From Atriophallophorus winterbourni (Eukaryota > Platyhelminthes > Trematoda > Plagiorchiida > Microphallidae), in the NCBI GenBank assembly GCA_013407085.1, contig JACCGJ010018690.1, positions 33,540-97,539 of the forward strand: 64,000 nucleotides of DNA. The letters are read 5' to 3'. The notes beneath the pieces are model-generated. The model made no database searches and was not told the origin of the DNA. It saw only the letters and a program-made list of their open reading frames with translations. Below are positions 5,901-64,000 of the stretch, one piece after another. Every line of letters begins with the position of its first letter. Positions within the stretch are counted from its first letter, which is position 1. The position numbers and the translations under genes were made by a program.

Positions 5901-8900
5901 GTACGGACGGTAGTCGATATGTTTGCGAACACGCGTGTCGGATTCAGCACAGGCCCATGCTGCTCGCCAGCCAACTACTTCTTCGCCTTCTCGAAGCCCC
6001 AAAATCGCATAAATTTGTTCCTGATAAAAAGAAATTTAGGCTATTAAAATGCTTATGGTGCTAAACGGATATAAATAACCTCGGACCTAATTAAAAACTG
6101 CGTTACCTATAGAAAGTATATTGATCAATGCACTTAATTGGCTTGAAATGAAGCTATCATTATTTGAAGTACGTTAGCACGTGACTGTGTTTTGTGATCA
6201 GCGTCGGCCTTCCACGAAAGTATCCTTCGCTTCGACCAGAGAACGGGTGATTTTTATCGATTAACACGAGGTGTGACGTGTGAATACGCGAGAACGAATC
6301 AGCACTGCAAGATCGCAAATTATTGATATAAGCAAAGAGGGCATTGCAAAATGAAACAGGCGGAACCAATTCAACAGTGAACAGAGAGCACTTACGACAT
6401 ATGTGTTGTTCAATCCATGTCGAAGAATAGGCTCGTAGGGTCGATTGTTTTGTTTACGATAACTCGGGGAGAAATGATCCAAATCAAACACTGGACCAGT
6501 GGCCAAGTTTTCTCCCAAGTACAATGACCAAATTCCGATAGAAGCCAAATTCGTTGCAGGGCGAAGGACCTGAACAAAAAGAAATCAAAATTTATATCCG
6601 TTTTTTGTTTCGCATTTAGGGTGTAACATTCGAAAATCAATACGGCCAATCGACGACAAATGGCTTGCTGTTATTTAAATTCATTCTAAATAACGTAGCA
6701 TCACAATAGTGAAATATTTACAGAGATTTGATCGCCTAAACTAGATGTCATTTACCGAGCACATTCTTGGTTGACCGTGTCAATCTTATGAAACAGTGGT
6801 TTGAAAATTTGATCCTGTTTGTCACACTACCATCGTTCTAGTCTGGCTGAACTCAAACTTGCTGTCATCAAATGGAGTAGAACCTCAGAGTCCTCCAGCC
6901 CTCAACCTAGTCCGAAGAAGCTTCTGTGTCCAAATCTGCTCTAACCGATACATTGCAAACTTTCTTATCATGGCTATGGATTACCGATTGGTCTCAAATA
7001 GATTCAAATACCTTGCTAGAAGAAAACCTGTTGCGCCTCCATATTATGTTGGCCTGCCTCGGACTATGTCAACCGAGAATGTGCATCACAAGCGCGCGAT
7101 TATTTTATGCTCCATAGCGTTTCGAATGACTAAACAGTCCGATTCGGGAAGAACAATTTCTCCCGCACCCCTCACAGCGATAAGCAGGACTTGGTGGATC
7201 GATGTCAGTTGCACGCTGACGGCGTGATCTACGATCACCAGAGCAGTATCTGCTCTTGTTCAGCTTGTAGATGGCGCACCTTCATATGACACAGCTCAAG
7301 CACAATGCAAAATGCTTATTAATGAAGCACCACAAACATGAAACTGACGATTAATACAGCACAACCGTTTCAAGTGTGACGTCATTCTTAACATTGCATT
7401 CAGGAAAAGGACCAGCAAGTTCAGGACAGTCGAGCAAAAAGTGGATGCTAACCTTTTCAGCTAACTTTGGGCAGTACCGGAAATTGAAGAAAATCGGCCA
7501 TTCCTCATGTTGACGTTCGATGTACGACCACAGCGAATTCGAGGTAAGTGAATACTGCAGGTTAGACCGCGAGGCATCACTCACGTCAGACCACGAAGCC
7601 AATCGGTCTGCCTCACAATCATATTTGAAGTCTTTGAAACGGTTTGACAAATGATGGTATGCAAGGAACTGAAGGAAAAAGTCACTAAACTCAAAAGACA
7701 ATGGGAATTGTCTGAGAAGTTGGTGAACCGCATCCAGGAACTGGAGGAAAACGGGTGCAAGAGATTCCGTTTTCGAAGAAACAGTTTGCCGTAGTCGCTG
7801 TCCAAACCGATGGCCAAACAACAACCATTCCTTTTCGACCAAAGCCCAGAAACCGTCGATTGTGCGGTAATGAGGGTCCATCATCACTTGCGCTAAGGCG
7901 ACAACCTGCAAAGGATCAATGAAGCTATAACGTAAGTCTTGTGGACACTTCGGTTGAAAATAGCGACGGTAGTTTACTACTAGGTAGTGCATGCAAATCG
8001 TCAAAGATACGTTCCGGGGAAGAATTGAACAATATAGTTGACTGGGTATATTAGTTAATCTCCAACATCACGGGTGTGGGAGCTCATTTTTCTGCATTTG
8101 AAAAACAATTCTATTCACTTTCAATCAATCAATAAAAAAATAAGTTATTGCCAAAGTATTCAAACATCAAATTCGGTTTGTGTGTGATGGAAATGCAGGC
8201 AAATGCGCTTTTTATTCAAGGTCATGGGTTTAAACCCTATCTACAAGAGTGTGGGCTCATGCGATTGAACAGGTTGGTCGTATTAACCTTATCCAACAGT
8301 GGCATACAAGCACAACAGAACAGAAGCTGAGTACTTCCCACTGTTTATAAAATGCTCCTATATGGTGCGCGTCTCAAATAGGCCCTGACAACCAAGTCCA
8401 GCTTCTGGCCTGCACGAGCCCGGCGGAACTGCTTCTACCAACAGAAGAAGGGGCGAGGGCGAGTGACTGGCACCTGAAAACGAGTTTGCTTCGGGCAGAT
8501 GGAGCTCGTTAGCCTGGGAGGGCATTTCATCAAAGGGAAGGGAAAAAAACCTGATTTTAAACCCCCACTGCCTTGCGGGAAAGCTGATCGCGGGAAAGGC
8601 TTCGGGAGAAAACCGATGAAAAACCTGGATGGTAGACGGTTAGTGGGTGCACACCACCTCTTTCTGGCAACTCCCTGCTGCCTTGCAGGTCGCACTTGGT
8701 TGTGCGAGGGCTAGAGAAGCTGACTCGAACAAACGCCGAGTGGTGCTGGTGATGCCGCTTTGTACCCAAATTCCCAAGAATCTTCATTGAAGCCGACTCA
8801 TCCTCCAGGAGGAGATAGTCGCACACAAGTAACTTCCCGTTTACGAAGTGAGAAATGCACAAGTGTTCTCTGGAATCAATCTATATGGTCTATCGACGAC

Positions 8901-14900: not shown

Positions 14901-17900
14901 GTTGAGTGCCACGCTCCCAGAAATTCTCGCGCCCGTCGATCGTTTTCTCTGGCTAATATTCTTGTGCGGTCCCATTCGAACTGATGCCCAAATTGATCAA
15001 CATGTATTGAAATCAGTGAATTCCAGTCATATCTGCGTACGGCCAACTGGTGTTCATGTAGTCTTGTGCTGAATTTCCGACCTGTTTATCCAAATAGGTC
15101 TTTTCGCAATCTCTGCATTCAATCTTGTACACGATATTCGACTGTTCTTCTTTCTCAAATTTTCTTTCATGTTGTAGAGATGGTTGTGAAGTGTTGATGT
15201 GGGTTTATGCACGATGTTCATTCCATGTGGCCGAAGTACCCGAGCTGCAATTTCGGAGATATGTTGAATATACGGCAGAGTGCGTCTGGTTCTGTTTTCT
15301 GTCGGATTTCTTTGTTGGGGTCGGTTGAACCTGTTGCGTAATATGAAGCTTCTTGGATATCCATTTTTAGGGAAAACAGTGAACAGATATTCCTCTTCTT
15401 TTCTTCTCAGTTCATCTGTACTGAATAGGGTTCTGGCGCAACTGCGTTTGTGAATGTTCGGGTGCTTGCTGTGAAAGTTCAGTATTTGATCCGTGTGTGA
15501 GGTTTTCCGGTAAGTCTCTAGGCCGAAATCTTCACAACGACGACCCCCAATTAACAAAACCCGTGCATGGAAACTAATGGAACATCAAAACCGAGAATGG
15601 CTGGAAATGCTCATTTCAGATGCACACAATCGTTTGAAGAAATACGCAGAAATAAGTAATATTGTAAGACAAAATTGTGAAGACCGAATTGAACTTGAAT
15701 TGACGCAACGATTAGAAAAACCATCACAACAACGACCCGAAAAACTAAGGCCAACAAGCGACGTGACCTGGAAAACAAAATTCACAATATCACCCCTTAT
15801 CAGGACACTACCAGCGGGGAACATTGGGTCAAGAACGTGTCCCACAGACCCCTTACTAAGAAGGAACAACACATTCTCGAACGTGGCCTCAACTTCAACT
15901 TGAAAGACGCTGATCACACTCGATTCGTGGCTAATTTGGAGTTTCGTGTTAGCCATGTGTATGCTTGAGCTCCATTTAACAAAGAACAGTGCGCAAACAT
16001 AAGGGTTTTTCCCGCACAATCACGCGTAGCGTAAATTGTCACGCAATATTAATGTACTTTAAAAAAGTCCAGGGTAAGGTAAAGAAGATGATCCTGATGA
16101 TATACTTGCTACAGAAACTGTAACCAAGCACACTTCCACCTGAGATCAAGAAGTTAATTAAAAATCGTTATCATAACAATTCTGAATTTTACGGTCAAGT
16201 AATTTTGAGACTGTGGTGCTCACATTTCGATCACATACACGTGATCGTGAGCAAACTGACCACTGCGGTTAGGCAAAAAGAATGTCGTAAAAAGCATAGA
16301 TATCGAAATGGTTACATAAACCGTTTATTATATTCATCATTTTGAAGGCAAATTTCTATGAACTCTAATGTTTGATCCAAATTGTGTGTGAGAGGGATCA
16401 AATAATCAGTTTGTAAAAACGGGTTGAAATAAGTGGCACATTTTCAGTCCTTAGTAGTTGCATATCAATTTATTCGTAATCGCTCAAGATTCCTTTATTT
16501 TCACGAGAAAAAGCTATACGCATGAGTCAGGTGGTACATATCGATTGTTCAACCCTATCATTAGAAAGGACCAGTGATAAATGCTCACATCGGACTTTAC
16601 CCTCCATCGTACGTAACGAGAGCCCACCCAAACGACTTTTTGTCTGCCGCGAAACGTCTAGATTATTATTGGCCATCGCAGTTGCATTCGTTGCGGGGAC
16701 AAGATCGTTTGAATCAGGAGCATGATACGTTGATGTCGATAACATACCGTTTCCAACTTCCGTGGAAGCCACCAGGGAGAGTTCGAGAAGGGCCAGGAGA
16801 TATCGTGCGTTTTCTTTGCTAGTAGAACTGTGAGAGCTGGTTGTTTCGCCAGATTCACCTGAATCTAGTAAAGAAACAAAACGCATTACCAATGTACAGA
16901 ACATAGTATGGTGTAGTGGTGTCGGAGAAAATCGCTGGATAGCAAATAAATTGCAGTACACCAAACCTCAGAATAACCCAACAGCTGTAGCTAGAAGCAG
17001 AATAGATGTTATGTTATCAGTATCTAAACTGGATGCGAGACTGTCGCGGTTATTAGTGTCTCGCCAATGGCAACTTTACGTCCAGTTTGAGTTGAGAAAC
17101 GGATTTCTGAGTCCATTTAGCTATGCACCTATATCCCCTCACTTACATACCACAGCCGTTTTCTGGCTGGTTGCCGTAATCAAGTGATACATTATTCGTG
17201 GTCTGAAAATTTCGCAAGAAAATTGGATGCATTGTGAAACAGTCACTCCATGTGGAACAACGAAACGAAACGCTCAACTACGGAGTGGGAAAATTTTTGT
17301 TCATATAAGCGAGGAAGGACACCGAGTTGTGTACTGGCCAGGGGTAACCGGTTATAGATTACCGGAACTGGGCGAAAGAAGTTTTTACGTGAAAACGGAA
17401 AACCCATTTCTATCCGTTACTCGGTCTGCGTAAACGACACAGCGATTATCGGTCCGAATGCAGACAGCTTTCCATATCGTTTCACGTTGCTCGACATTAA
17501 CAAGAAAAGATTGACGCATGATTGAACATACCGCGTCTGTGATTTCAAACATTGAATTTGTAGTTTCTCGAATGGCAACAAAACGAGTTTCTTTAGCATG
17601 TGTTGGGCAACATTCTGCTGGCCACAGATAAAAAATTTACGTTTTAGAAATACCGGTTCTCACGTAGTTTTTAATTTGACGTGATAATGAGCGCAAACAG
17701 TCGAAAACGGTCGAGGCGTGTGTTTGATTAAAATGCACGTAAATATAGATTAGTTTAAAGGTTCGATTTATGCAGTGTAAACCCAACAAAACACTGAACA
17801 CAAACGCAGAATTTACGCTCCACGGAATTACTGACAACTTGAATCGATATAGAAACCATACAACAAGTACCGGAATAAGAAGAAACGCAAAAACCAACAT

Positions 17901-23900: not shown

Positions 23901-26900
23901 AAATTTCATCCGGATCAAATCCAATTTTAAGCAACTGGAACGTGAGCGAGCGTAAACAAATAACGTCGAAATTCTCCTCGATCCGCACCAGCCCATGACG
24001 CGTTTGGTTATCGTGCACCGAGTTTCGATGACGAGCACGTCTGCGATGTGCCTTCGTTTCCCCGGAGACCAAGGGCCGATTGGAATTTGCTATATGGTGA
24101 TTGGGTACCGTTGAACTCACCGCGGGGAAGGTCGTAGTGATTCGCATCAAACCCAACTTTTTGACCGAATACATGGCGGAAATGGGGAAGCTTCGAATAA
24201 TCGTCCGATTGGATTCTAGAATGAAGAAGAAGAACGAATCAAGTAAAGGTTTTATTCGAAAATATTTGAAATTTCAGCTTTGCGTTAATGTTTAACACAA
24301 GGAAAGAAACAGAATTACAAAATATTAACGAGATAAATATTTTCTCAATGGTTCTATGACTACATCCTTTTGACAGAGATAATTTGAGGCGAAAGGGGTC
24401 CATGATCGCCGATATCGTGATGTAGAAAAAGATTTGGCCAGTTCAGTGTGGAGTGGCTGGAAATAATCGGCTACAATAAAATCAACAAGTCAATCACAAG
24501 AAGCAAATTGATGCTTCATAATAATTTCCAGGCTGCGTTCGTAGGAGATAGAACTTCAGAGGAAACGAAGAGAAGTGGGTCTGGATGAAGCATACAAGAC
24601 GGGATGTGGCCGGTAAAATGAATCGTCTTGGAAGGGATGGACGAGTTTAAAACCCGTATGAACCTGAGGGATTTTACTAACACCAAGATATTTTCGATTA
24701 AGTCTTTTGCATTATAACTGTTTATAGAAAATGCAGGCAAAAGACATTGGCTACACTCACCGGAATTACTCATAACAGCTTCGTGTGTTAGCCAAATTTG
24801 AGCAGTTAGAACATTTACAGTGACCTTAATGAGCTGTTCTGGGCTCAAAATATAATTACAAATTCTTATTGCATGGAAACTTCAGTGCACAGTAGACCAA
24901 AAATGGACTCACGATAAGGATCTCTGGGAAACCCGGTAAAGATGACACGATAATTCGTAACGAAGAGTGCGCCTTGTGCCGGTAAAAGCGAAGGAATCAT
25001 AGCATCCACATCAGACTCCAGTTCATCAAGCTGTGAGCGCTCGCTGTTGACAGTCGTCCGTGTGGCATTGCTGCTAAGATCACTGGCGGCATCCAAGTTT
25101 TGGCAATCCGTGAACTCCAGGCGGCCATCAATCAGCAGTTGGCAACGAACACAGTCGTAGCCGTCGATGGAAAGCACGATTTCGTTCGGAAGCAACGTTG
25201 GACTTAATATCTCGGGCTGCGGATGAGGTGAAACAACGTGAACAAACCGCACGTTCTATTCGGTTGGTACATACGATTAAAAAGACCAGGAAACTTGTAT
25301 AAAATAGCAAACAGAAACAAATGAATTCTCTCAAGAGGTCAATAGTATTGACGAGATTATCTAACGCGCAAAATAGTAAGGAATCGGGATTTAGGTAGGA
25401 AAGACGGCTATGATTACACGGTGAGATCAGCCTGCACGATTGGTATGAATGAAAAACTAAATAATGTGAGCATTCATCATCACTTCTATTCTGGAACAAT
25501 AGACACAAATCAATTCGCAAATGAAAATTCGACTGCTACGAAAGATAATAAAAGCGTCCGTGCAAAATAATCAGGCTAGCTTTGGCGAATACCCGTGTTA
25601 AGTTATAAATAAGCTTGCTGTCTTCACCTGCTGAGGACAGATACCAAAACCTTGAGTGGAAAGTGAGTGCTGGGGGTATGAGTAAAACAATACAAACAGT
25701 TTCAAACAGTTCATTCTGCTGCATCGTCGAAACACAAACTTTCTCCAAAATCAATACCATCGATTTGTAGCGATATAATAGCATCCTCGTGGTCCGCTGG
25801 GTAGCGCATCTAAACATAAGACGCAAAGCGTGCAAGGATCGACTGGCAGTAGATTAGTTTTGAGCACGCATATTCCTAGGCAACCTAAATGGTATCCGAA
25901 AGCGAACACTTACAGGCCATAGAGCGGGAATAAAAATTTCAGCAAAGTGGAACATGACGCTTACCTTTTTAGCTTTCGGGATATTCTTCACTTCAGGATA
26001 GATGGATTCCAAGTTCAACAAATGACCTTCAATGATGTCTGCGTAGAGATGAGACAAAATTGGTACACACATAATAACCAAACACATTACAGAATTTCAT
26101 CATCGCAAAATACATCACAATTTGTGGCACGCTGTGTCTAGGCCAGAGCAATCAGACAGTATCTTAGCCCATGTACAGTCTCTGACTGTGCGGCACTTTG
26201 CTTGGATCAGGCTTGTGCTTTCATACATTATACATACATACGCTGGCGAACATGTAGACATCAATAAGAACTTTGCGTGACTAGATTCGATCTGTGGCCA
26301 ACCTACGGCTGAGCTACGAACTCTTGCTACTGGAACCAGCTGATAGCCCCGCAAAACAAAATTGCCTGGTGCATGGTGAAGAGATCAAATTAGCACGGGA
26401 TATGACGAGTGGTGGGTGTCATGATAGTACAGCAACCGAACCCAAAACCAGGAATAAGAAATATAATTAATCAACTTCAAATGAATCAAAATGACTTGAA
26501 CAACATGTGCCATCATAAACACCATGGAAAGATGCCGTGAGGCACGACATGTCGTGAAATGTTATGCGAATGAAATGGTAGAACTGCAATTCTGCTACGG
26601 CTTACCTTCGATCTTTTTAAGAATCTTGTTTGCACGATCGCTGTGTAAATTATTCTGGTCAACAACTTTTTCCACAAAGCGACGGAGCCAAGTTTCAAGG
26701 CGAAGAATATACTCTAAAGCAACTTCCGAAGTTGGCTCTTGAAATCTCCCACGACCATGGCGACTGAGAAAAAATATGAGCATGGGATGGAAGAACAACA
26801 TGACCGGGATAACAAACCAGCTATAAACTAAATAGACATTGTGATTATTTGGTATAAACATAAATTTTTGTGACCACATAGATGAAATACGATTGGACTC

Positions 26901-29900: not shown

Positions 29901-32900
29901 GATAGGACGAGATTTCAGATCCTGACGGATCGTATTCCTCCTCTAAAAAGACGTAGGTTTACGGATTGCTTGTACATAACCATCTTATATATAGTGGGAG
30001 ATTATCGCGAATAAAAATCACTTCATATGAAAGTTAGCCAAAAAACATTTTGACAAAAATGTGATCTTGTTCGTGTGAAGCAGTAAGACGAGGTTGAAAT
30101 GCTTAATTCACACTGTTTGAAGTTGAAGTCAGAAATGTACAACTATTCTTATTAAAAAAGATCCATAGTCTCATACATTATCATCACACACAAACACCAC
30201 GACCGGTTTCATGCTATTTGCGTCGATCAGGTAGGGACGTAGGATCAGAATCTGCATGCCTTGCAATAGTGGAGAAACGGTAAACAAGATATAAACTTGT
30301 AAGCCATTGATGAGAAAGGATGGAACGATCAGTCCTTGAGATTGAACAAACATCCTCGTTTGTATGCATTTCCATCACACACTGGTGAACTCTTTTCAAG
30401 CAACCGCCAACTTTAAATAATTGTCAAAGCTTCAGTCAATAATATACCAATATAAAAAAGAACACGGACACGAATGAACTTAAATGATTTGTAATACGAC
30501 AATATAGATGACATACACGAATGGGAGCACCAAAAGAGTGGTGATGAACAGTAGATTCACAGGGAAACAAACCTTGAGAGCTTCTGTGAGATGGTTGTTG
30601 AATATGTCTGCAACGAACTCGCGTATGACGCGACTTTTTTCCGAGTACATATCGGACCTGAACAGCTGTCTATCCAAAATCAATCCTTGGGGGACGAAGC
30701 GCGGTTCCGGTACATGATGTTCAACATTTCTGAACAAAAACAATCACGCCCAGCATTCAGGTGAATAAAATAGAGGTCTTAGTAGCAAAATAGAAAACTG
30801 GTTACAAGTTTCTACATACACACTGTTACCGTTTCTGATTGACCACGTGCTGTGTGTGAATTGTGGTTAACGGATGCATTTGAATGCCGAAAACAGCCGC
30901 ATGAACGCAACAATGGTGACTTGCGGAGCTTAAGATTTCGAATGTGTGTCCAGATAACCCAAACCCAGAAGACAAACAAAAACGATCGAATCCAGTTGAG
31001 TGAAGAGAAGTCGATTAATTTTTTGAGTGGCGGCATGCCATTGTTTTTAGCATATGGGTCATAACCGGATCGGCAATAAAAATCGATAAGGGGAATTTTC
31101 TTGTTGTCTCAAAAATAGGACGTGGTGGTTGTCCCTGCTGTCCATGCAGTTAACGAAATGTTAAGGAAAGGTGGTTTTGATCAGAAAACCGGTATACTAA
31201 AATCAGCAAATGTGAAAGGTATTCTCAAACGAACCAACCGCTTTTACGAAGGTTCTAATTCAACGTGGTCAAACACATTATGTACGAGAGGCGGTGTGCA
31301 TGAGTTTACGAAAGCACAGACCTGAAATCAGGTCAGACAGGCATGAGTGCTTTTAAACCTGACAATTCTCATCCACGCTGGGAGTTTTACCGTGGAGGAG
31401 CTTGTCTTTGCAATGGCATTTACTTCTTCTTGCTCCATCAGTCATATTTACCTTCCTATCGCTGGTGTTTGTGTGCGGGCATCCCCTTCAATGAAAAGCA
31501 AACTTTCTTCCCAACCGTTCGCGCTTTAATCTTATCTTCAAACGAGTGATGACTAACGAGTTAAACGGGTGCATAGCAGCTCGTTGTGCACAGCGTGCGC
31601 TAACGTAGTACTAAACAGTGGATGCCAATTGAAAGCTAACAGACGCCAAGGGTACCCAGGTTTTACCAAAAACATCCCTTTAATTAATCCGGTCTTCACA
31701 GCATAGAACATATTATTCAACAATTAGGCTGCAAACTATGTTCAATAGTGAATATGAGTGGCAAAAATGCCCGCAAACAGAAACAGGCGATATATTTCGG
31801 AATTCGACAAAAAACCTGACTAACTTGTGCTGCTTTTTCGCCATCGCCTCGGTGATGAGTTGATCGACCAGACGAGCGTCTAATTGTGGGAAAGGAGTTG
31901 GGTGAATTCTTTTGTGCGCCTGTGTGGCCTCATTTGTAAGCGTGTGTTCGACCGGCGACTCATCGCATTCCTTGAAAAAAACAATAAAATTGACTGATTA
32001 CAACGAATGTGTGGTTGTACTTACCGGCCAACACATTTCAAGCAAGTGGGCGCATGCGAACAATTGAGACGTAAATATTGATTAATGATTTCATACAAGG
32101 ACGATCAAAAACAGCTGGTTCGCGGAATAACGCAGATACAGTCCATGAGCCATGTGGATTTAGCTTAATGCCATTCTTAGAATTCAATTCTGAATTGGGA
32201 CGCAGAAAATTTTGGCAACAACATGACAATTTAGTCAGATGAACAATCCCGGCTCAGCTATTAACAGCCCGTAATTAGACCTGGGCTCACATTTGTGTAT
32301 TTTCGGAAAGAATCCCGGGAAATCTACCTGCACGTAGAGAAGAGGGAAGATAAATCGATATCAGCAATTGTGTTTAAGCGCGTTGACCCAATCAGGAAAT
32401 GGGCACTAAAGGACTAAAGAACAGAAATCGATTATGCAGATAAAGCTATACTGCAAGATTTCAACATCGATATGTTGTGGACAGCATCAAACAGTTTCCG
32501 TAACTTTACAAGAAAAGTCAGTCACGTAATGAAAACCTCAAATATCTGGAACACCTTCATCCGGTTTGCCGCCAGCTATTTAAAATTCCGTGCATGTAAC
32601 GCTTTACAATCGATGTCCCAGTCTTTAAGTACCTTGGTTCTAGTATTCTGACAGTTGGTACTAAACACAAGTTTTGCTCGCGCGTGTGATGTGCCTTTAC
32701 AGTTGAAATCTAGTCTCGGTGACACAATGAGATAAGTTTTAAAGTAAAAACTTACGTTTACCAAGAAGCTGCTCACCTTACTAACTCTAGAACGAAAGAG
32801 CATTAGAGTGTTCGTCCATTACTTTTGACCAGTATGTAATAAAACGGCGGGTTATGATGTAGTGGAATGCCACGAACATTCATTTTTCATCAACGGAAAA

Positions 32901-35900
32901 AGAAACATGGTTTTTGCGTTGCTCGCTAGACAGACCCACACACACTAAACATGACATCGTAATGGTTTGTCCTATAATTTGACCACGGTGTCCTGTAAAG
33001 ATGTGGTTGTTAATAGTGCAAGTGCTGCTTATCGTCCACGGGAACAAATGAACGGAACTAGTTAACAAATACCTCAGGTAGACACAAGTGGTCCGCCAAC
33101 GGGGACGACCAATCCATCCATGGAGCCAGCCACAAGTACCACAGTCGAGCAATGAAGTAAAAGGAAAATTTAGTGATAAACGTTTCCGGGCCTTTGATTT
33201 GAGAGCAATCGTGAACTGCAATTGGCTGGAAATGACCTGACGCAATCAATTACGGTTTCTCTCCCCAACCCCCACTCGCTACAGTACGACATCGATACAC
33301 TGGATATGAACTCATTAAAACAAAACAAATATCTGGTAATAGTGGCAGTTTTCACGAAACTAATTGGTGGTGAGGATTGTAATAAAATTTGGGTGACACC
33401 CATTTTAGTGAAAACATCATCGTCATGGTCATCTTGAAGCAAAAGTCTGGAGCCAAACAAAGTGCCGAGTGACAACACGGATAACCGATTAAAAAACGCA
33501 CACTGACAAGTGAGAATATGAGGGGAATTTAAAAAATGAAAACAGCGCAAACAGTATAACACAAAATGTGAGATTGTACATCAGCGGGGTGTAATTTAAT
33601 ATTTTCACACGGTTTGCACTTGATGAATCACAATGGTGGAAATCGCGCATACAAGTAAATCTCAGTGTTTAATAACAATTTTAACACCCTGAATTCGCTT
33701 TGATTATTGAAAAGTGTTGCCCACATTCCACACACTTTATATTGGTCATCCATCAGCACCTCGAGTGCTTGGTCAGGAAGCACTTTGTGATTCCGTGTTT
33801 GAACATTGTGGCTTTGATTATATTGTTGACTAACCTTGCTAACGAAAAATCCACCAACAATCAAGACTTACGTTTTGCAGCAACTTTTGCGCAACATGTT
33901 CGATTGATAACACATCGGGGCCGGATTCCTCGTGGAGTGACGTCGAAAAACTGGACTCCACCGAATGAGCGAGTGGCAAAGAGACATCGTAAACTTCATC
34001 GAACACGTCACATACGCGGAAAGGTGGCCCGCGCTCCAAAATGAATTGTTGAAAGCGCATGGTTGAAAGAAGTCGTTCGAAAAACTCACAGTGTGAAGGG
34101 ATACCGCGAAGCATGAGGAACATGGACTGAGAAAAGAAAACTGGTGGTAAGCAGGACGAAACCTTTGTGTTCTTTTTTTAAGTAAAAAACCCAGTCAGTC
34201 AAAACATAATGTTTGGCAAAACAACACGATGGCAAATCAGATAACTACAGTTAGCTGGTAAAAAAAACCTAACTTTAAACTATAGTTGAGCAGGTTGATA
34301 GATCAATTATTACGTAAGTAACATCGTACTTACGACGCCGGCGTGCAACTGATGCAATACAACCGAGTTCTGGCTGTCGTTGCCAGCGCTGCGGGAGAGA
34401 TTATTCCTCCCGGACTGTTTAGTCATTCAAAAAGCTGTAGAACATGAAAATTCATGCGATTGTGATGTACACCCATGGTCGACATCGACCGAAGGAGCCC
34501 AACAACAACAGCATCCTACATAAGTGGTCTGCCGTAAGCATTGAGCTGCACGCGAAAATACGTTAGAATCTAATTGCCATTTCTTCTCTCCTTACTCAGT
34601 ACGGACTTGGGCAAGCTGGCAGTGCTGACTGTGCGATATTGCCTGGATCAGAGTTTGGCTTTCCATACATAAATTGATTATTGTCAACTACATATTTAGA
34701 GCCATCAAAACGCTATTCAAAAACCGTCAAAATCCCGTTTTAATTTAGTAAGACATTACAAAGAGTTATTAAAAAACTGAATTCATTTGTGAGCAACTGG
34801 AAATCATAGCTAGCAAATTTCTTCCAAAACATCTAACAACCTTGGCTTACATCCACGTCAAATCCCGAAGTGTCCCCGCAGCGTTTAAACGCGAATATAA
34901 AACATTTGGCAAAGAGCCTGTGAGCTGCCAGTAATTAGTCAAACGTGGGAGAGATTTTCACGTGCTATGGTGATTAAGCTAATCAATGTAGTCGCCGCAA
35001 ACATTCACGTGGTACATGGTTCAGTTGACGACAGTGGAAACCCAAACCACCGTTGTTAGCCAAACCATTGACTACCAGTAAAATCATAACCGAGTAATAC
35101 GGAGTATGCTTGAGGATGCTCCCAGGACACGGTTAAATAATTCTCCCTAATTTTATAGAACGAAATCTCAAGCATAAAAGCCAAAAATAGAATTTTCGTT
35201 TATTTAACAAATTAGCCACATTTTTCAAGCAGCTCGTCAGAAAATTTAATCTAAATAAATCACTAGAATGGAAAATAGTGAGTTAGGTTTCATTATCGAG
35301 CTATCAAAACGAAACAGCCGGTGCTGAAGACGGAATTGAGGTGAAAAAAGATGTTGCAACAACACCAAGCAGCGCCAGTAATTGATGTAAAAGAACGCGA
35401 TAAATACATCCTAAATCAATATTTTTATGGACGTGTTAAATTAGAATAATGATGTTGAACTGGAGGCCATGTTGTGTAATGAACTGCATGCGGGCTGAGA
35501 TAACGGTAAGTTATCAACACGTAAACCTGATTTATGAAAGCACAAGCCTGATCCAAACAAAGTACCGCACAATCATTGACTGCACGCGAGCTAAGATACT
35601 GTAAGGTTGAGAAATAAAAATAAAATAGAATTGGGAGTGAGACTCCAGCGTGTTTGAGCGCGTAGCTCACTGCTGGTGGCACGGATGTGCAATCGTGCAG
35701 TATTTCTGTGCTATGCGGCTAACACCGTGCTAAATTGATTGGCCAGAGGTAGTGAGCTGCATGCTGAAACACGCTGGAGTCTCACTACCATTTCCATTCC
35801 CCCCTCATATCTGTCTAGGCCTGGACAACCTGACAGAATCTTAGCCCACGTGCAGTCTCTGGCTGCGCGGCATTTTGCCTGGAACTGGTTTGTGCTTTCA

Positions 35901-38900: not shown

Positions 38901-41900
38901 AGACATATATGAGAAAGAAAGCAGAAAGGGTAGTGAGACTCCAGTGTGTTTCAACATGCAGCTTACTACTGGTGACCAATCAGTTTAGCAAGGTATTAGC
39001 CGCAAGGCGGCGGTAGCAAGTAGCAACGAGTGCCTAACTGCCATACAACTGTGTCAAAATAAAATTCTAAAATAGATGTGGAAGGGCTGGACCTAGAAAC
39101 TAGGGAATCTGTAGGACATTAAGGATATGCATACCGGGATGAGGTACATACACCTGGGATCAAACATGCATTTAATCGATTTTTTAAGTGAGAATAATGT
39201 ACAAGAAGAATCTGGACAGAGCAGACCATGACATAATTTCGATATTACGTTATGTGATCATTAGATCAGTAATAGGGTTAGGATGATTTCATTAGGTTCT
39301 GTAAAGAAATGAAAAACAGAAGCGCAATTAGAGAATGACATGCAATTTTGATAGCTTGTTGGCTATTGTTTCTTGGGAAGGTAACTTTAAAACCGTTGTC
39401 AAAAAATGTTCAACACAACATGAACAACTTTTTATTATTTTTGCTGACATTTCGCGTCTACTACAAGCGCTTCAGGTATGGTATGATGATATGAAAGCAC
39501 AAGCCTGCTCCAGGCAAAGTGCCGCACAGTCAGGGACTGCACGTGGGTTAAGATACTGTCAGGTTGCCCAGGCCTAGACAGATTTGTGGAAGAAAAAAGA
39601 ACAGGAAATGGTAGTGAGACTCCAGCCTGTTTCAACAGGCAGCGCACTACCTCTGGTCAATCAATTTAGCACGTTGTTAGCCGCACAGCACGAAGTACTG
39701 CACGATTGCAAATCCGTGCACAGCGCTTCAGGTGAGAAGACAATGGGTTAGAACCCTGCAAGGGTGCGATTAAACCTAGTTCTCTACCATGCCAGATGGC
39801 CTTAGCGACCTAGCAAGAAAATTTGGCTTTCTTTGAAGATCAAATACTCGGTCAAAATACAATTTACTGTCCTGTTGAAATTGTCTATCAGTGTCCCTTC
39901 ACTACAATTGCCTTCAATTATCATTGTCCAAGGGGGGCTGAAGTCCAGGTTACAATGCGAACATCACACTAATGTTTTCGACTTATATTACTTTCTCAAG
40001 GTGTATGAGCTTGTGAATGAAAGCGAAAGCATGGATTCAGACTAATATAGTACTATCACACATTGTACGTGATTTGAGATAGTGTCAGGCTGCACAAGCC
40101 TAGACTAATTTATGAAAATTCCGCGGTGTACGCGCGGGGGGTGAGCACCACAGAACATTGCTCCAAATATTTCAATTAAAAATTTTCCCTCGATTCATTC
40201 AGTTGTTCTACCCCGATAGTTTGACCACCATTACGGAAACCCACACTGAGCTTTTCATTTTTTTAAAATTTTCGAGGTACCCAAACGTGTCTCATTAATA
40301 AGAATTGAATGGGTCTTTAGCAGATTTTATCAGATGTTTCAAGGCCGTGGTTCAGAACTTTTACCACAATCACGTTTCAGGATCGCATGCGTTGGTGAAA
40401 AAACGAGCAAGCTCAGTGGCGGTTGACATGATCTCTAGTTGTTTGCAATGAGTGCGCTACGAAAAGAGTACAAACTTACCCATATTTCAAAGGGTATAAA
40501 ATGTTCGCAAGAGCTTGGCACGATTGGGTAAGACGATTAAGACTACGGGAACATAGCAGCACTTTTTGATCGCTGAGTATCGCCGTGAACAAGAGGATAA
40601 CATTGTAGATACCTGGAATGGATGAAAAGACGTTGTTTAGTACTGAACACAATCAAGAAACACCAGGAATTACTTGGTAGATTGAATAGTAAGCAGAATA
40701 GTGGTTTAGATTTCGACAGAAGCCTTGCAGCAATTTGCTGATAGACTTTGAAAATGGCGTATTAGTACTGTCGTTTGCATACCTCAAAGTGTAAAGCTTT
40801 AACTGCTCATACAGTGCAATAAACAATAAAATGTATCCTCAATTTCATTCGGTTAAACACCGAATTAGAGTTTAAATTTAGATGACATCGTGTAGAACTT
40901 TGCAGTATATACCATGTACAGTAGCATAGTGAAGGAACAACACAGGGGCAAGAACACCTAGTTCGACGTTTCTTTGAACTTCGCTTCAGGAAACAAGCTA
41001 GGAAGCGTGATGCTAATCCATAAATTGGTGTTTGTCTATGCAGCCATCACTGCACATTGCCGAGAGCAGCTGCGGTCACTAACACATTGTCTTTCGTCGG
41101 AATGCTTTGGAAAAACAATTAGCTTGAACAAGACAAACGTTCGTGGTCAACGGACAGTGTCGTCCGCCATTGTCACGATTCAAAACCGTCAGCCTGAACT
41201 AGTGAATCTCTTGATTAATCTCGATTCAACTATTCAAGACACTGTCATCAATGATCGCGTATAGCAGCGAAACGTGTATCGTTGACCCTTTTAGGGAGCA
41301 CTCGTCACATCTTGAACATATCGTGGGTGGACAGAATAACAGATACAGGAGTGCTCCGTAAAATCATGTCCAGATTACTTCGACAGCGTTATCTACACTG
41401 GCTGAGTAAAGGATATAGCATTGAAAACCGTTGGATTCCCAAAACTTTATAGGGAAGACGCTTTCGATATCGAGCTAAACGGTTCGCCTTAGAGACAGAG
41501 ATAAGGCATCAGCTGTTAAACAAAGATGAAATAGTCACCTGACATGCTGTTCCAACGGAGTTCTTATTGTTTATCGCTCAGAACACTGTCAAAGAGACTG
41601 CTACACCCTAAACGGATTATATGGTCCTGCGAAGTGTTGTCGAATATGGAATCGTAATGTGTTAAAAATCTACCTCCGTGGTCAAGATCAACACACAAAG
41701 TGAACCGTGAGTAAACGGAAAATACAAAAAGCTTACCCAGATGTTTGAACAGAAGAGCTACGTAATTTCGTGTCACCGGTATCGTATCGCAAAGGGGAGG
41801 TTGAATAATGTGGCGGTCGCCGGCTCCAAGACTAAAGGACAGACGAGGTCCTCCTGAAAGAAAAAATGATCCACTGAAACGAGGCATAGCATAAATCGCT

Positions 41901-44900
41901 AAAGCTAATATCAAAGGGCAAACAACAATATCTGGCTGGCACGTAATAGAGAGGCAGGTGAAACATTGCTATCAAAATTTTGAACTGACAAAACAAGCTG
42001 CGGAAATGAAGCGGTGTCGAATTTCGGGTTGTCGCAATAATTTAACCACATTGATAAGCTATCAGCTAGAAATGAAGTTAGTAGTAACAAAAAGTGACGG
42101 GTAATGGAGTTTCTACGGGCAAACTTAAGAAGTTATTGACAACACCTGAGGTACTAAGGTAAAAATCTACAAGAATTATGCTAAGTATTGAACGTCGATC
42201 TATAACGGGATCAAACTGTAAGATGATGTGATGTGAAAGCACATGCCTGATCCAGGCAAAGTGCGCACAGTCAGAGACTGCACATGGGCTGAGATACTGT
42301 CAGGTTGCCCAGGCCTAGACAGACATGACAGAAATAGACAGAAAATAGAAATGGTAGTGAGACTCCAGCGTGTTTCAGCATGCAGTTTATAACCGGTGGC
42401 CACTCAATTTAGCACAATGTTAGCCGCACCGCACAGAAATACTGCACGATTGCACACCCGTCTCACTTATGATACCTTTTGGCATAACGTTCCCCAGCAT
42501 ATGCTTGGTCATAGGATAGAACATGCCTCCAAGGGTTAATGGACAACGTATGCGGTGCGTATCCGATAATCGTTTTCAACACATTTAGTGTAGCTACATG
42601 ATAACCATCGTAGTATTATCAGTGGGTTATATTCATAGTGATACAATGCTTCACATAGCTGTCTGGTATGTAAACTGAGGTATAGACCTGTATGTTTCTT
42701 CATTATGTTCAAGTTCACTGTCCTATTATAAAATGCTGTGAAATGACCGGATAGTGAATTGATAGGTCGAAAAATAAATCGGTTATAGTCTTAATTCAAT
42801 GACACGAAACTTTGGCCAGATGAGTGAGCCCACAACTCGCATAGCGCTTCAAAGAGCACCTTATGATGTACCTGCGAAAGCTTACTTTTACTTTACTTTT
42901 GTGCGACTATCTCCAGCTGAAGGATGAGTCGGCTTCAATGAAGGTTCGTGGGGATTTGGATACAAAGCGGCGTCCCCAGCACCACTCGGCGTTTGTTCGA
43001 GTCAGCTTCTCTAGCCTTTGCACAACTAAGTGCAACCTGCAAGGCAGCAAGGAGTTGCCAGAAAGAGGTGGTCTACCAGACTCTGTTCTAGGTTTTTCCT
43101 CAGGGTTTTCTCCCGAAGCCTTTCCCGCGATCGGGTATCCCGCAAGGCAGCGGAGGTTTAAAATCAGAGTTTTCCTTCCCCTATATAAAATGCCCTCCCA
43201 GACTAACGAGCTCCATCTGCCCGAAGCAAACTGATTTTCAGGCGCCAGTAACTCGCCTTCCCCTTCTCCTTTTGGTAGAAGCAGTACCGCCGGGCTCGGG
43301 GAGCCAGTCGTGCAGGCCAGAAGCTGGACTTGGTTGTCAGAGGCTATTTGAGACGCGTGCCATATTGGAGCATTTTATAAACAGTGGGAGCTTATCCCCA
43401 CTACCACCCCCGGGTATGACAACCTTTGGAACCTGCGAAAGCTTGGAAGTAATTGAGCCATGAACCGGACGGTTTATGTTTCTTCAGGTAATTTTTGCAA
43501 CTATTGCTAGAATAAAAAGGACCGCGGCGGGGTAGCGTTAAAGTACACGTCTATCAAGCAAGAGCTTCCGGGCTACATCACCACTGTGGTATACAAGGGC
43601 GCACGGCCTTCAAATCGACCGAGCACAACATTAATTTTACCACACATTTTCATTTATTCTTACGCAATCTGTTTGCTAATTACATCATATTTTCGTATTA
43701 ACAAAGGAGATTGCGTGACGGACAATGGTTAAGAGAATTACGAGAAAATTCCGACCAAAAATGTTCGGCTACGGCATTTGAAAAAACTCAGTCATGTAAT
43801 GAAGCAATCAAACATCATGCTAATGTCGAGAGTTCTTTGTTACATTTTTTTAATTTTTGGTGAAATAAATTTGATTGCTCAAAATTCGTGTACAGTAATA
43901 AAGCAATCTTCTCCATCTTCATAAGCCCTACGGTCTAATGATGGAAATGCCATTTATTTCTCTGTGCTGACAACGTAGTTGAAAAGCCTATGGACTCTAG
44001 ACCTTTCATTAAACATGGTGGGTGTAAATATAGATAAAAGTAACAAGAAATCCATATTATCGACATACAGATAAGGTTTACTCGTATGCACCAGACCAAC
44101 CTAAGCTTACTTATGAGAGTTTAGTAATGCTGAGAAAATTTATTGGTGCTAAAAGTGGCATACAAAAAAATAAAGTAAAACTAACCTGAGAAAGGAACAT
44201 CAATTGCCCCCAATAATGTCGCAATCATTTGCTCCAAGGAATACTGACCAAGCGAATCCGCAAAAACCGTATATAGCAGACTCAAACAGTTCTGAAAAAG
44301 AATCACCAAACGGTACGCGTTTATAATGAGAAAATCACAACCGTGATCCAGGCAAAATGGCGCACAGTCAGACTGCACATGGGCTAAGATACTGCCAGGT
44401 TGATCAGGCATAGACAGATATGGTAAAGGAAACTAGCAGTGGTAGTGAGACTCCAGCATGTTTCCGCATGCAGTTCACTACCGGTGGAAAATCATTTTAG
44501 CAGGGTGTTATCTGCACAGCACAGACGTGCTGCACAATTGCACATCCGTGGCTCAAGTGGGCTAAGATACTTTCAGGTTGCCCAGGTCTAGAAAGAAATG
44601 TGAGAAAAAGTGACAATGAGGCTCCAGCATGTTTCTGGATGAAGATGTAAATCACACGGGATTAGAAGTACTACATGGTTGCACATCCGTGCCAAGAAAG
44701 TAAGGAACAGCAGCGAATTTTCGACGCGTTTGTTAACTAAGTCAGAAAATTACCGGAATTATTGGGGATAGCTTAAGATAGAAAATGTGGAAAAGCCTGT
44801 AACAAATGCCGTACGCAAAATATGTGGGCAGCGGATGTAATCGATCAGTTATCGGTACTGGTCAAAAGTATTTGATCAACATGAGTCAATGCATCGAGTT

Positions 44901-55696: not shown

Positions 55697-55975
55697 ATTT
55701 AGTTCTAGACTTTTCCTCGCAATATCTGTGTTTCCGTACTATATCAGATCACGTACCGATTACCTAAAAACAAATTTAAATACCGTTACCTTTATATTTA
55801 TTGAATGTTAAATTCCGCTGAAACAAATGACCATGAATGAATTGTTTTTGCAAATATATATACTATAATTTTATTGCACTAAGCTTTTGGAAATTCTTGA
55901 TCATGTTTAAAATGCCTTGGATTTCTAAGAATAAAATTTATTTATTTACTTGAAAAATGTCATGTATATTCTCGG
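55697..55975 (-). repeat. Left arm of a ~280-bp inverted repeat
   Basis: This is the reverse-complement partner of 62326-62605, differing by scattered substitutions and small indels. It lies directly upstream, in LINE orientation, of the minus-strand LINE relic at 54.75-55.66 kb. Confidence 0.75.
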
Positions 55976-62325: not shown

Positions 62326-62605
62326 ATCTTTGCCCTGAAAACGGAAAAACTTCAAATAAATGAATAAATTTAATTTTTTGGAAATCCCAGGCGTTAAACA
62401 TGATCAATAATTTCCAAAAGATTTGTACAATCAGATTATAGTATGTACATTTGCAAAAACAATTTGTTCAAGGTCATTTGTTTCAGCGGAATTTACCGTT
62501 CAATAAATATGAAAGTAACGGTATTTGAAGTTGTTTTTAGGTTATCGGTACGTGATCTGATATAGAACGAAAACACAGGTATTGCGAGGAGAAGTCTAGA
62601 ATGTT
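62326..62605 (+). repeat. Right arm of a ~280-bp inverted repeat
   Basis: It matches the reverse complement of 55697-55975, including ATCGGTACGTGATCTGATAT and CATTTGTTTCAGCGGAATTT. The match ends in GTCTAGA, just before the ribozyme array begins. Confidence 0.75.
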
Positions 62606-62620
62606 TTCGAACTGAACCTG

Positions 62621-62680
62621 ATCTTACTGTCTCCACCTGACGATGGCGAACAGCCTGAAACCGGTAGTGGTGTGTAAGGG
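62621..62680 (+). ncRNA. Hammerhead ribozyme, array copy 1
   Basis: Core CTGACGA at 62637-62643. Helix II is GGC/GCC with a GAACA loop, then GAAACC and GGTA; predicted cleavage is after A62666. Helix I is CCAC/GTGG, an internal loop, then CTTAC/GTAAG. Helix III is ACC/GGT with no loop, so it can only form well between two ribozymes (ACCGGT is a palindrome). Weak point: positions 10.1/11.1 are U/U, not the usual G-C. Confidence 0.78.
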
Positions 62681-62863
62681 ATGGGGATGTGAGCAACACA
62701 TTACTTTGGTCATCCATAAGCGCCTTGAGTGCTTTGACCAAGAATCACTTTGTGATTCTGTGTCTGAACATCGTGGTTCGTTGTACGAACCCTATATAAC
62801 AGTTGGCATACAAGTATAACCTTGTTTACCTTTAATCCACTGTTTCAAGGCTCACTGAACCTG

Positions 62864-62923
62864 ATCTTACTGTCTCCACCTGACGATGGCAAACAGCCTG
62901 AAACCGGTAGTGGTGTGTAAGGG
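62864..62923 (+). ncRNA. Hammerhead ribozyme, array copy 2
   Basis: Same core and helices as copy 1, with loop II AAACA instead of GAACA. Core CTGACGA is at 62880-62886, GUA cleavage triplet intact, 10.1/11.1 are U/U. Confidence 0.78.
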
Positions 62924-63105
62924 ATGGGGATGTGAGCAACACATTACTTTGGTCATCCATAAGCGCCTTGAGTGCTTGACCAAGAATCACTTTGTGATTC
63001 CGTGTCTGAACATCGTGGTTCGTTGTACGAACCCTATATAACAGTTGGCATACAAGTATAACCTTGTTTACCTTTAATCCACTGTTTCAAGGCTCACTGA
63101 ACCTG

Positions 63106-63165
63106 ATCTTACTGTCTCCACCTGACGACGGCAAACAGCCAGAAACCGGTAGTGGTGTGTAAGGG
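63106..63165 (+). ncRNA. Hammerhead ribozyme, array copy 3
   Basis: Core CTGACGA intact with the GUA triplet. Helix II GGC/GCC is kept; 10.1/11.1 are C/A in this copy. Confidence 0.78.
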
Positions 63166-63347
63166 ATGGGGATGTGAGCAACACATTACTTTGGTCATCC
63201 ATAAGCGCCTCGAGTGCTTGACCAAGAATCACTTTGTGATTCCGTGTCTGTACATCGTGGTTCGTTGTACGAACCCTATATAACAGTTGGCATACAAGTA
63301 TAACCTTGTTTACCTTTTATCCACTGTTTCAAGGCTCACTGAACCTG

Positions 63348-63407
63348 ATCTTACTGTCTCCACCTGACGATGGCAAACAGCCTGAAACCGGTAGTGGTGT
63401 GTAAGGG
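63348..63407 (+). ncRNA. Hammerhead ribozyme, array copy 4
   Basis: Core and GUA triplet intact. It carries the U/U variant at 10.1/11.1, like copies 1 and 2. Confidence 0.78.
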
Positions 63408-63590
63408 ATGGGGATGTGAGCAACACATTACTTTGGTCATCCACAAGCGCCTTGAGTGCTTTGACCAAGAATCCCTTTGTGATTCTGTGTCTGAACATCG
63501 TGGTTCGTTGTACGAACCCTATATAACAGTTGGCATACAAGTATAATCTTGTTTACCTTTAATCCACTGTTTCAAGGCTCACTGAACCTG

Positions 63591-63650
63591 ATCTTACTGT
63601 CTCCACCTGACGACGGCAAACAGCCAGAAACCGGTAGTGGTGTGTAAAGG
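63591..63650 (+). ncRNA. Hammerhead ribozyme, array copy 5
   Basis: Core and GUA triplet intact, C/A variant at 10.1/11.1. The outer helix I strand reads GTGTAAAGG, with one A replacing G compared with the other copies. Confidence 0.77.
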
Positions 63651-63835
63651 ATGGGGATGTGAGCAACACCTTACTTGTGGTCATTCAATAAGCGCCTTGA
63701 GTGCTTTGACCAAGAATCACTTTGTGATTCTGTGTCTGAAAATCGTGGTTCGTTGTACGAACCCTATATAACAGTTGGCATACAAGAATAATCTTGTTTA
63801 CCTTTTATCCACTGTTTCAAGGCTCACTGAACCTG

Positions 63836-63895
63836 ATCTTACTGTCTCCACCTGACGACGGCAAACAGCCAGAAACCGGTAGTGGTGTGTAAGGG
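63836..63895 (+). ncRNA. Hammerhead ribozyme, array copy 6
   Basis: Core CTGACGA at 63852-63858 and GUA triplet intact, C/A variant at 10.1/11.1. The rest of this monomer is cut by the window edge. Confidence 0.77.
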
Positions 63896-64000
63896 ATGGG
63901 GGATGTGAGCAACACATTACTTTGGTCATCCACAAGCGCCTTGAGTGCTTTGACCAAGAATCACTCTGTGATTCTGTGTCTGAACATCGTGGTTCGTTGT

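What the first reader, a model, noticed from the sequence alone, without database searches (positions are those of the whole stretch)
62612..64000. Tandem array of hammerhead ribozymes in ~243-bp monomers
Six successive monomers each contain all invariant hammerhead positions: CUGACGA, GAAA, a U16.1, and a GUA cleavage triplet. Both helix I strands and helix II are present. The homogeneous unit size, the tandem layout and the type I topology are the known hallmarks of metazoan retrozymes, which give self-cleaved circular RNAs. If the array is transcribed from the plus strand, unit-length RNAs would be expected. The family and its link to this worm are my inference.
Basis: partly seen in the sequence, partly recalled or inferred. 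Interest (0 to 1): 0.9.

Follow-up and report, generated by a model that had tools for sequence, protein, structure and literature searches.

The report
Flatworm retrozyme-like paired hammerhead ribozyme array
A flatworm chromosome carries a row of near-identical 243-letter repeats, each holding a self-cutting RNA motif that looks built to work in pairs, so multi-unit RNA could be cut while finished single RNA rings stay intact; it is an untested example of a known kind of animal mobile element.

Summary
From 62611 to the window end lie five complete 242-245 bp units and one cut unit, each with CTGACGA, GAAA, U16.1, a GUA triplet, a two-part helix I and a short helix II. A descriptor fitted to the motif found nothing in 50 simulated 64-kb strands. 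Five older partial copies lie upstream, three covering the ribozyme region.

Amphibian retrozyme hammerheads with similar weaknesses cleave well only as dimers (PMC7229834). The double-hammerhead fold beats two single ones in 5 of 5 neighbouring pairs, but is not the energy minimum in any.

Against: no Rfam model detects the array; unit circles are not unusually structured. The right end lies off the window, and the genome search did not complete.

Verdict: probably a flatworm non-LTR retrozyme with a dimer-type hammerhead; a new member of a known kind.

The parts
62611..62853 (+). array unit 1 (243 bp), U·U type
62854..63095 (+). array unit 2 (242 bp), U·U type
63096..63337 (+). array unit 3 (242 bp), C·A type
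63338..63580 (+). array unit 4 (243 bp), U·U type
63581..63825 (+). array unit 5 (245 bp), C·A type
63826..64000 (+). array unit 6, cut by the window end, C·A type
62623..62678 (+). hammerhead of unit 1: helix I CTTAC/GTAAG and CCAC/GTGG with internal loop TGTCT/TGT; core CTGACGA; helix II GGC/GCC with U·U at its base, loop GAACA; GAAA; helix III ACCGGT; predicted cleavage after 62666
   Evidence: pairing counted
62866..62921 (+). hammerhead of unit 2, predicted cleavage after 62909
63108..63163 (+). hammerhead of unit 3, predicted cleavage after 63151
63350..63405 (+). hammerhead of unit 4, predicted cleavage after 63393
63593..63648 (+). hammerhead of unit 5, predicted cleavage after 63636; outermost helix I pair broken (G to A)
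63838..63893 (+). hammerhead of unit 6, predicted cleavage after 63881
30189..30306 (-). old partial copy of the unit (about 77% identical), with a decayed hammerhead: extra base in the core, ACCGGT intact, GUC triplet
   Evidence: E 1.9e-16; model R1 E 3.6e-7
17142..17196 (-). decayed hammerhead region of the same family
   Evidence: model R1 E 7.2e-6; alignment score 49
25614..25667 (+). decayed hammerhead region of the same family, weak
   Evidence: model R1 E 2.4e-4; alignment score 35, between the control 95th (24) and 99th (41) percentiles
33732..33811 (+). old fragment of the unit outside the hammerhead (unit positions 86-166, 83%)
   Evidence: E 1.6e-17; alignment score 100
8272..8316 (+). 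old fragment of the unit outside the hammerhead (78%), borderline
   Evidence: E 5.8e-4; alignment score 41, at the control 99th percentile

Best explanation
The array is a genomic copy of a non-autonomous non-LTR retrozyme of a flatworm, with a type I hammerhead that needs a partner. Shown by the sequence: the tandem units, the core, helices I and II, a loopless self-complementary helix III (ACCGGU) and old dispersed partial copies. Inferred: read-through of the + strand gives multimeric RNA; neighbouring hammerheads pair through ACCGGU (6 bp) and exchange helix I strands to form a double hammerhead; cleavage after GUA releases 242-245 nt RNAs; a host RNA ligase closes them; the circle, now with a single weak hammerhead, is stable and serves as template for a reverse transcriptase supplied by another element, giving tandem copies.
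For: All core positions in 6 of 6 units. No descriptor hits in 50 simulated 64-kb strands. Type I HHRs in 150-450 bp, low-GC tandem repeats are the published hallmark of metazoan retrozymes, and retrozyme-like repeats are said there to occur in platyhelminths (PMC7229834); units here are 242-245 bp with GC 0.437-0.455. Old copies at five upstream places show dispersal. The two-molecule minimum-energy fold of the U·U ribozyme is the double hammerhead at -31.9 kcal/mol; one molecule alone prefers at -13.3 a fold that pairs core bases over the hammerhead without helix III at -10.7. In adjacent-unit transcripts the forced double hammerhead beats two forced singles by 2.1 to 8.5 kcal/mol in 5 of 5 pairs. 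[quoted passage not shown] A review names a palindrome in the stem III loop and tandem arrangement as requirements of double hammerheads in eukaryotes (PMC6466107 passage).
Against: No Rfam hammerhead model hits the array. For C·A with C·A the minimum fold is a different structure 0.8 kcal/mol better than the double hammerhead, and for U·U with C·A the minimum is 0.4 better. In adjacent-unit transcripts the double hammerhead lies 2.5 to 6.4 kcal/mol above the unconstrained minimum in 5 of 5 pairs. Forced singles lack helix III because the energy model cannot close a loopless hairpin, which favours the double form. Circular folds are unremarkable (z -0.6 to -1.9) and the minus-strand circles are predicted more stable in 5 of 5 units. 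One review says most invertebrate type I hammerheads have a stable helix III and cleave as monomers, though it also says a weak helix III is common in type I motifs (PMC7761336 passages). The two interleaved unit types are not what one copied circle would give. No RNA data and no view of the right end.
Confidence: 0.72

Rival explanations
1. The array is the terminal repeat region of a Penelope-like element (PLE), whose hammerheads lack helix III and can act as dimers; the reverse transcriptase gene lies beyond 64000 or is lost here.
For: PLE hammerheads are described as lacking helix III, occurring in tandem and possibly cleaving as dimers (PMC7761336 passages; PMC6155905 passages). The right side of the array cannot be read.
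Against: No reverse transcriptase or GIY-YIG domain in the 29 stop-to-stop frames scanned with Pfam: 21 of the 35 frames of 120 aa or more listed, plus 8 shorter ones; the rest were not scanned. This motif keeps a two-part helix I with internal loop, whereas PLE motifs are described as minimal and without loop-loop contacts. The unit size fits retrozymes.
Confidence: 0.15
2. An inert satellite: the array derives from a former retrozyme but is now spread by DNA-level unequal exchange, and the ribozyme is too weak to matter.
For: Two unit types are interleaved (U·U, U·U, C·A, U·U, C·A, C·A) and units share several variable sites. Rolling-circle copying of one RNA circle would give near-identical units. 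TRF scores a two-unit period of 485 slightly higher (2599 against 2571). Rfam is silent.
Against: All core positions are kept in 6 of 6 ribozymes while 20 of 246 columns vary; but 4 of 56 ribozyme columns vary, about the same rate, so this is weak evidence. Exchange after insertion does not exclude activity.
Confidence: 0.12
3. A SINE-like pol III element with a hammerhead, as Sm-alpha of schistosomes is described.
For: A-box-like TGGCATACAAG and B-box-like TTTCAAGGC, 39 nt apart, on the same strand as the ribozyme in the 3 of 3 units tested and not on the other strand (box consensus recalled). Sm-alpha is described as a SINE-like element with hammerhead and a relation to tRNA-Gln-derived repeats (PMC8490949, PMC2770079).
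Against: 47 of 1000 shuffles of one unit contain such a pair on one strand, so it may be chance; no tRNA found in the window.
Confidence: 0.05
4. A chance hammerhead look-alike in an ordinary repeat.
For: No Rfam hit. The descriptor had to allow for the ribozyme's weak points (loopless helix III, mismatch at the base of helix II, 3-bp helix II).
Against: 0 descriptor hits in 50 simulated 64-kb strands. A separate hammerhead 44 kb away with the same GAAACCGGT matches Rfam HH9 below its gathering score (E 0.055 in 64 kb), and model R1 built only from the array also finds it (E 0.021, rough).
Confidence: 0.03

Closest known systems
Metazoan non-LTR retrozymes (coral, mussel, axolotl; Cervera and de la Pena 2020, PMC7229834, parts 1-4 of 6 read)
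   Same: Tandem 150-450 bp low-GC units with a type I hammerhead, dispersed in the genome; the paper mentions platyhelminths among hosts of retrozyme-like repeats
   Different: No circular RNA shown here; helix III is loopless, unlike what is said of most invertebrate examples; circular fold less paired; not found by Rfam
Amphibian satellite/retrozyme hammerheads (newt, axolotl Amex1 and Amex2; PMC7229834 part 3, PMC6155905 passages)
   Same: Palindromic minimal helix III as in Amex1; U·U at the base of helix II as in Amex2; tandem array; dimer action in those species
   Different: One motif combines both weaknesses; 3 of 6 units carry C·A instead of U·U; 243 bp units against about 330-350; flatworm host
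Schistosome Sm-alpha and W-element hammerheads (PMC8490949 passages and section 11; PMC2770079 passages)
   Same: Flatworm tandem or SINE-like repeats with type I hammerheads, some shown to cleave in vitro
   Different: Unit 243 bp against 335 bp for Sm-alpha; no tRNA found here; the sequences were not compared directly
Hammerheads of Penelope-like elements (PMC7761336 and PMC6155905 passages; two primary papers are not held)
   Same: Reduced helix III, tandem, possible dimer cleavage
   Different: No PLE ORF in the frames scanned; two-part helix I kept here

Membership tests
type I hammerhead ribozyme | CUGANGA, GAAA, A15.1-U16.1, H17 other than G (numbering recalled) | tested here: met
   6 of 6 units
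type I hammerhead ribozyme | three helices with helix I open | tested here: inconclusive
   Helices I and II present. Helix III is ACCGGU without a loop, so it cannot form a normal hairpin in one motif; it can form between two
type I hammerhead ribozyme | match to a curated covariance model | tested here: not met
   0 Rfam matches for the array at gathering, at E<=10 in 1.5 kb and at E<=1 in 64 kb
type I hammerhead ribozyme | loop 1 - loop 2 tertiary contacts | not tested
   Internal loop TGTCT/TGT and loop 2 AAACA or GAACA exist; contacts were not modelled
type I hammerhead ribozyme | self-cleavage | not testable with these tools
   needs in vitro transcription
metazoan non-LTR retrozyme | tandem units of about 150-450 bp, GC below 50%, each with a type I hammerhead motif | tested here: met
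   242-245 bp, GC 0.437-0.455
metazoan non-LTR retrozyme | dispersed family | tested here: met
   Five older partial copies in the 62.6 kb upstream; those at 25.6 and 8.27 kb are weak. Genome-wide copies could not be counted
metazoan non-LTR retrozyme | target-site duplications where present | tested here: inconclusive
   right end of the array lies beyond 64000
metazoan non-LTR retrozyme | highly self-paired unit RNA (above 70% paired, PMC4918200) | tested here: not met
   55-62% paired, z -0.6 to -1.9 in 5 of 5 complete units
metazoan non-LTR retrozyme | no LTR, PBS or PPT | not tested
   not searched for
metazoan non-LTR retrozyme | circular and linear unit RNA in tissue | not testable with these tools
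   no RNA data
Penelope-like element | ORF with reverse transcriptase and endonuclease domains | tested here: inconclusive
   not in the 29 frames scanned; right flank unseen

The most novel reading that the evidence does not exclude
This flatworm retrozyme has an obligate double hammerhead that acts as a length sensor. Each motif is crippled twice (loopless helix III and a non-Watson-Crick base of helix II, kept as U·U or C·A), so multimeric transcripts cut themselves while the unit circle cannot easily reopen. That would give one concrete answer to the question, raised in PMC7229834, of how metazoan retrozyme circles escape their own ribozyme without being blocked by self-pairing.
Probability: 0.27. 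Interest if true: 0.6.

Novelty: new member of a known kind. Interest (0 to 1): 0.42.

Why it matters
Retrozymes with type I hammerheads are known in several animal phyla, and retrozyme-like repeats are mentioned for platyhelminths (PMC7229834). Dimer-type hammerheads are documented in amphibians and reported for PLEs, while one review says most invertebrate ones cleave as monomers (PMC7761336). A flatworm unit with a purely palindromic helix III would widen that and give a small natural system to test whether dimer-only cleavage protects finished circles. It also shows that Rfam models can miss such an array, so counts made with them may be too low.

Tried and rejected
Rfam at gathering and relaxed thresholds for the array: nothing. 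A degenerate ribozyme pattern in viral and prokaryotic contig collections: 0 exact matches in each, expected for an animal sequence. tRNA scan: none. Covariation within the array: no information, since only 4 distinct ribozyme rows exist; the facing change U·U to C·A never makes a standard pair. Circular-RNA stability as support: rejected, z only -0.6 to -1.9 and minus circles more stable. Pol III promoter: kept only as a weak hint (47 of 1000 shuffles). Left-edge target-site duplication: cannot be judged without the right edge; the left flank 62351-62601 is itself a dispersed repeat. The random-stretch control did not exclude the relic places, so its maximum (100) probably is one of them. Papers: searches (2 papers; 8; 0) gave schistosome elements and general hammerhead or retrozyme papers, among others; one search showed 12 of 3,360 papers, none of them holding 'hammerhead ribozyme', so it was uninformative; some searches gave general papers. 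This says nothing about papers outside the held library; Lunse et al. (PMC5785218) and Cervera and de la Pena 2014 (PMC4209133) are not held.

Full report
Observation. TRF finds one array from 62611 to the window end, period 242 with a slightly higher score for the double period 485. Cutting at the predicted cleavage site gives units of 243, 242, 242, 243 and 245 bp, GC 0.437-0.455; counted from the array start there are five complete units and a sixth cut by the window end. Each unit holds CCAC-CTGACGA-N-GGC-(A/G)AACA-GCC-N-GAAACCGGTA-GTGG. With CTTAC/GTAAG outside an internal loop TGTCT/TGT this makes a two-part helix I. A descriptor written after looking at the motif finds the six cores on the + strand, none on the - strand, and none in 50 simulated 64-kb strands. 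A looser version, one core mismatch and any base at position 17, also finds in the window two chance-like sites (24221 + and 54985 -) and the solitary hammerhead described below; in 20 simulated strands it gives one imperfect-core hit and no perfect-core hit.

Helix III consists of A15.1-CC-GG-U16.1 with no loop, which is its own reverse complement. The base of helix II is U·U in units 1, 2 and 4 and C·A in units 3, 5 and 6; it never forms a standard pair. The two bases change together. One further variable site, alignment column 227, follows the same split in the five complete units, so two unit types are interleaved in the array.

Why this suggests a dimer. [quoted passage not shown] the single-copy repeats cleave 6% and 22% in one hour and dimeric constructs cleave much better (PMC7229834 part 3). 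A review names a palindrome in the stem III loop and a tandem arrangement as requirements of double hammerheads in eukaryotes (PMC6466107 passage). Here the two-molecule minimum fold of the U·U type is the double hammerhead at -31.9 kcal/mol; one molecule alone has its minimum at -13.3 in a fold that pairs core bases, against -10.7 for the hammerhead without helix III. For C·A with C·A the double hammerhead is -30.9 and the minimum, a different fold, -31.7; for U·U with C·A -31.4 and -31.8. In transcripts of two adjacent units the forced double hammerhead is better than two forced single ones by 2.1, 5.7, 4.9, 5.6 and 8.5 kcal/mol, 5 of 5 pairs. It lies 5.1, 2.5, 3.2, 5.8 and 6.4 kcal/mol above the unconstrained minimum. 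The comparison favours the double form somewhat because the energy model cannot close the loopless helix III of a single motif.

Family and surroundings. BLAST of a doubled unit against the 62.6 kb upstream gives three regions with E below 1e-3: 33732-33811 (+), 30306-30194 (-) and 8272-8316 (+); all its other matches have E of 0.3 or more. A covariance model built only from the six array ribozymes (R1; E-values rough) finds, besides them, 30189-30243 (-) at E 3.6e-7, 17142-17196 (-) at 7.2e-6, 25614-25667 (+) at 2.4e-4 and 18932-18986 (+) at 0.021; the other 14 of its 24 matches have E of 1 or more. Against 300 random 401-bp stretches (95th percentile 24, 99th 41, relic places not excluded) the unit alignment scores are 100 (33.7 kb), 97 (30.2 kb), 49 (17.1 kb), 41 (8.27 kb), 35 (25.6 kb) and 22 (solitary hammerhead, so not a copy of the unit). 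The family is thus dispersed and partly old. The 30.2-kb relic keeps ACCGGT and has a GUC triplet but an extra base in the core.

A second hammerhead. Rfam at E<=1 over the window gives one match: HH9 at 18924-18998 (+), 25.4 bits against a gathering score of 52, E 0.055 (0.0003 in a 351-base search). It has CTGATGA, a GC-rich helix II, GAAA and the same loopless ACCGGT, but G at position 17, which by the recalled NUH rule should not cleave. It sits at the tip of a long predicted hairpin between two 31-bp direct repeats 306 bp apart (87%). The window has eight GAAACCGGT sites on both strands: six in the array, one in the solitary hammerhead, one in the 30.2-kb relic; base composition predicts 0.41.

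Host. The - strand from about 45.9 to 4.4 kb encodes an SBF/MTMR13 gene: uDENN, DENN, SBF2, myotubularin and PH matches above the Pfam cut-off, and a GRAM match below it. Joined frames match, among the candidates scored, flatworm proteins best: Fasciola gigantica, Paragonimus kellicotti, then Schistocephalus solidus. One conserved exon is 58% identical to Fasciola and 59% to Schistocephalus, so the class is undecided. A PAC1-like ORF has one hit, in Calicophoron daubneyi (a fluke, recalled), 29%. The array lies 5' of the detected exons and its ribozymes are on the opposite strand to the gene.

Results against. The solitary hammerhead shows that an Rfam model can score a loopless helix III when helix II is strong, so I attribute the miss to the weak helix II together with the missing helix III loop; that is inference and was not tested. 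Circular folds of the five complete units are 55-62% paired with z between -0.6 and -1.9 (100 shuffles each), and the minus-strand circles are more stable, -65.3 to -72.5 against -59.4 to -63.5 kcal/mol. Transcription is unsupported apart from a weak pol III box pair (47 of 1000 shuffles have one). The ribozyme columns vary about as often (4 of 56) as the unit as a whole (20 of 246), so conservation within the array is no argument for selection.

Comparison. Unit size, GC, tandem layout and type I topology match the published description of metazoan non-LTR retrozymes (PMC7229834 parts 1-4 of 6; PMC7761336 passages; PMC4918200 passages). PMC7229834 names platyhelminths among the phyla with retrozyme-like repeats, so the host group alone is not new. 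Other papers seen in part: PMC6155905, PMC6466107, PMC11722881 and PMC2770079 (passages), PMC8490949 (passages and section 11). The helix III state is more like amphibian and PLE hammerheads than what is said of most invertebrate ones. I file it as a probable retrozyme, with a PLE terminal repeat as the main rival because the right end is out of view.

Mechanism, step by step. Shown: motif, tandem units, dispersed relics. Inferred from relatives: read-through transcription, cleavage by paired hammerheads, closure by a host RNA ligase (RtcB closes such RNAs in vitro in PMC7229834), reverse transcription by a helper element. Novel but unproven: the paired requirement would leave the finished single-unit circle uncut.

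Noticed in passing
18924-18998 (+): Solitary hammerhead matching Rfam HH9 below its gathering score, with the same loopless ACCGGT but G at position 17, at the tip of a long predicted hairpin (GACGTTCGAA/TTCGAACGTC, AAAGTCAGA/TCTGACTTT).
   Followed up: partly
18855-18885 and 19161-19191: 31-bp direct repeats (87%) 306 bp apart on either side of the solitary hammerhead: a possible long target-site duplication or a one-and-a-bit copy of a second retrozyme-like unit.
   Followed up: no
62351-62601 and 55703-55954: 250-bp dispersed repeat (87%, inverted) that ends about 10 bp before the first array unit.
   Followed up: partly
10890-11121, 35679-35911, 39481-39719, 42223-42461, 44332-44550, 38810-39004, 29191-29410 and others: Many copies of a SINE-sized repeat of about 230 bp, both strands, pairwise about 67-94% alike; no tRNA found in the window.
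   Followed up: partly
8336-8832, 42889-43430, 49397-49947: Repeat of about 500-560 bp, 81-86% identical, three copies.
   Followed up: no
about 4368-45854 (-): Large intron-rich flatworm SBF/MTMR13 gene; the hammerhead relics lie between its domain-bearing frames, on both strands.
   Followed up: partly
62611-64000, alignment columns 34, 46 and 227: Two interleaved unit types; not what copying a single RNA circle would give.
   Followed up: partly
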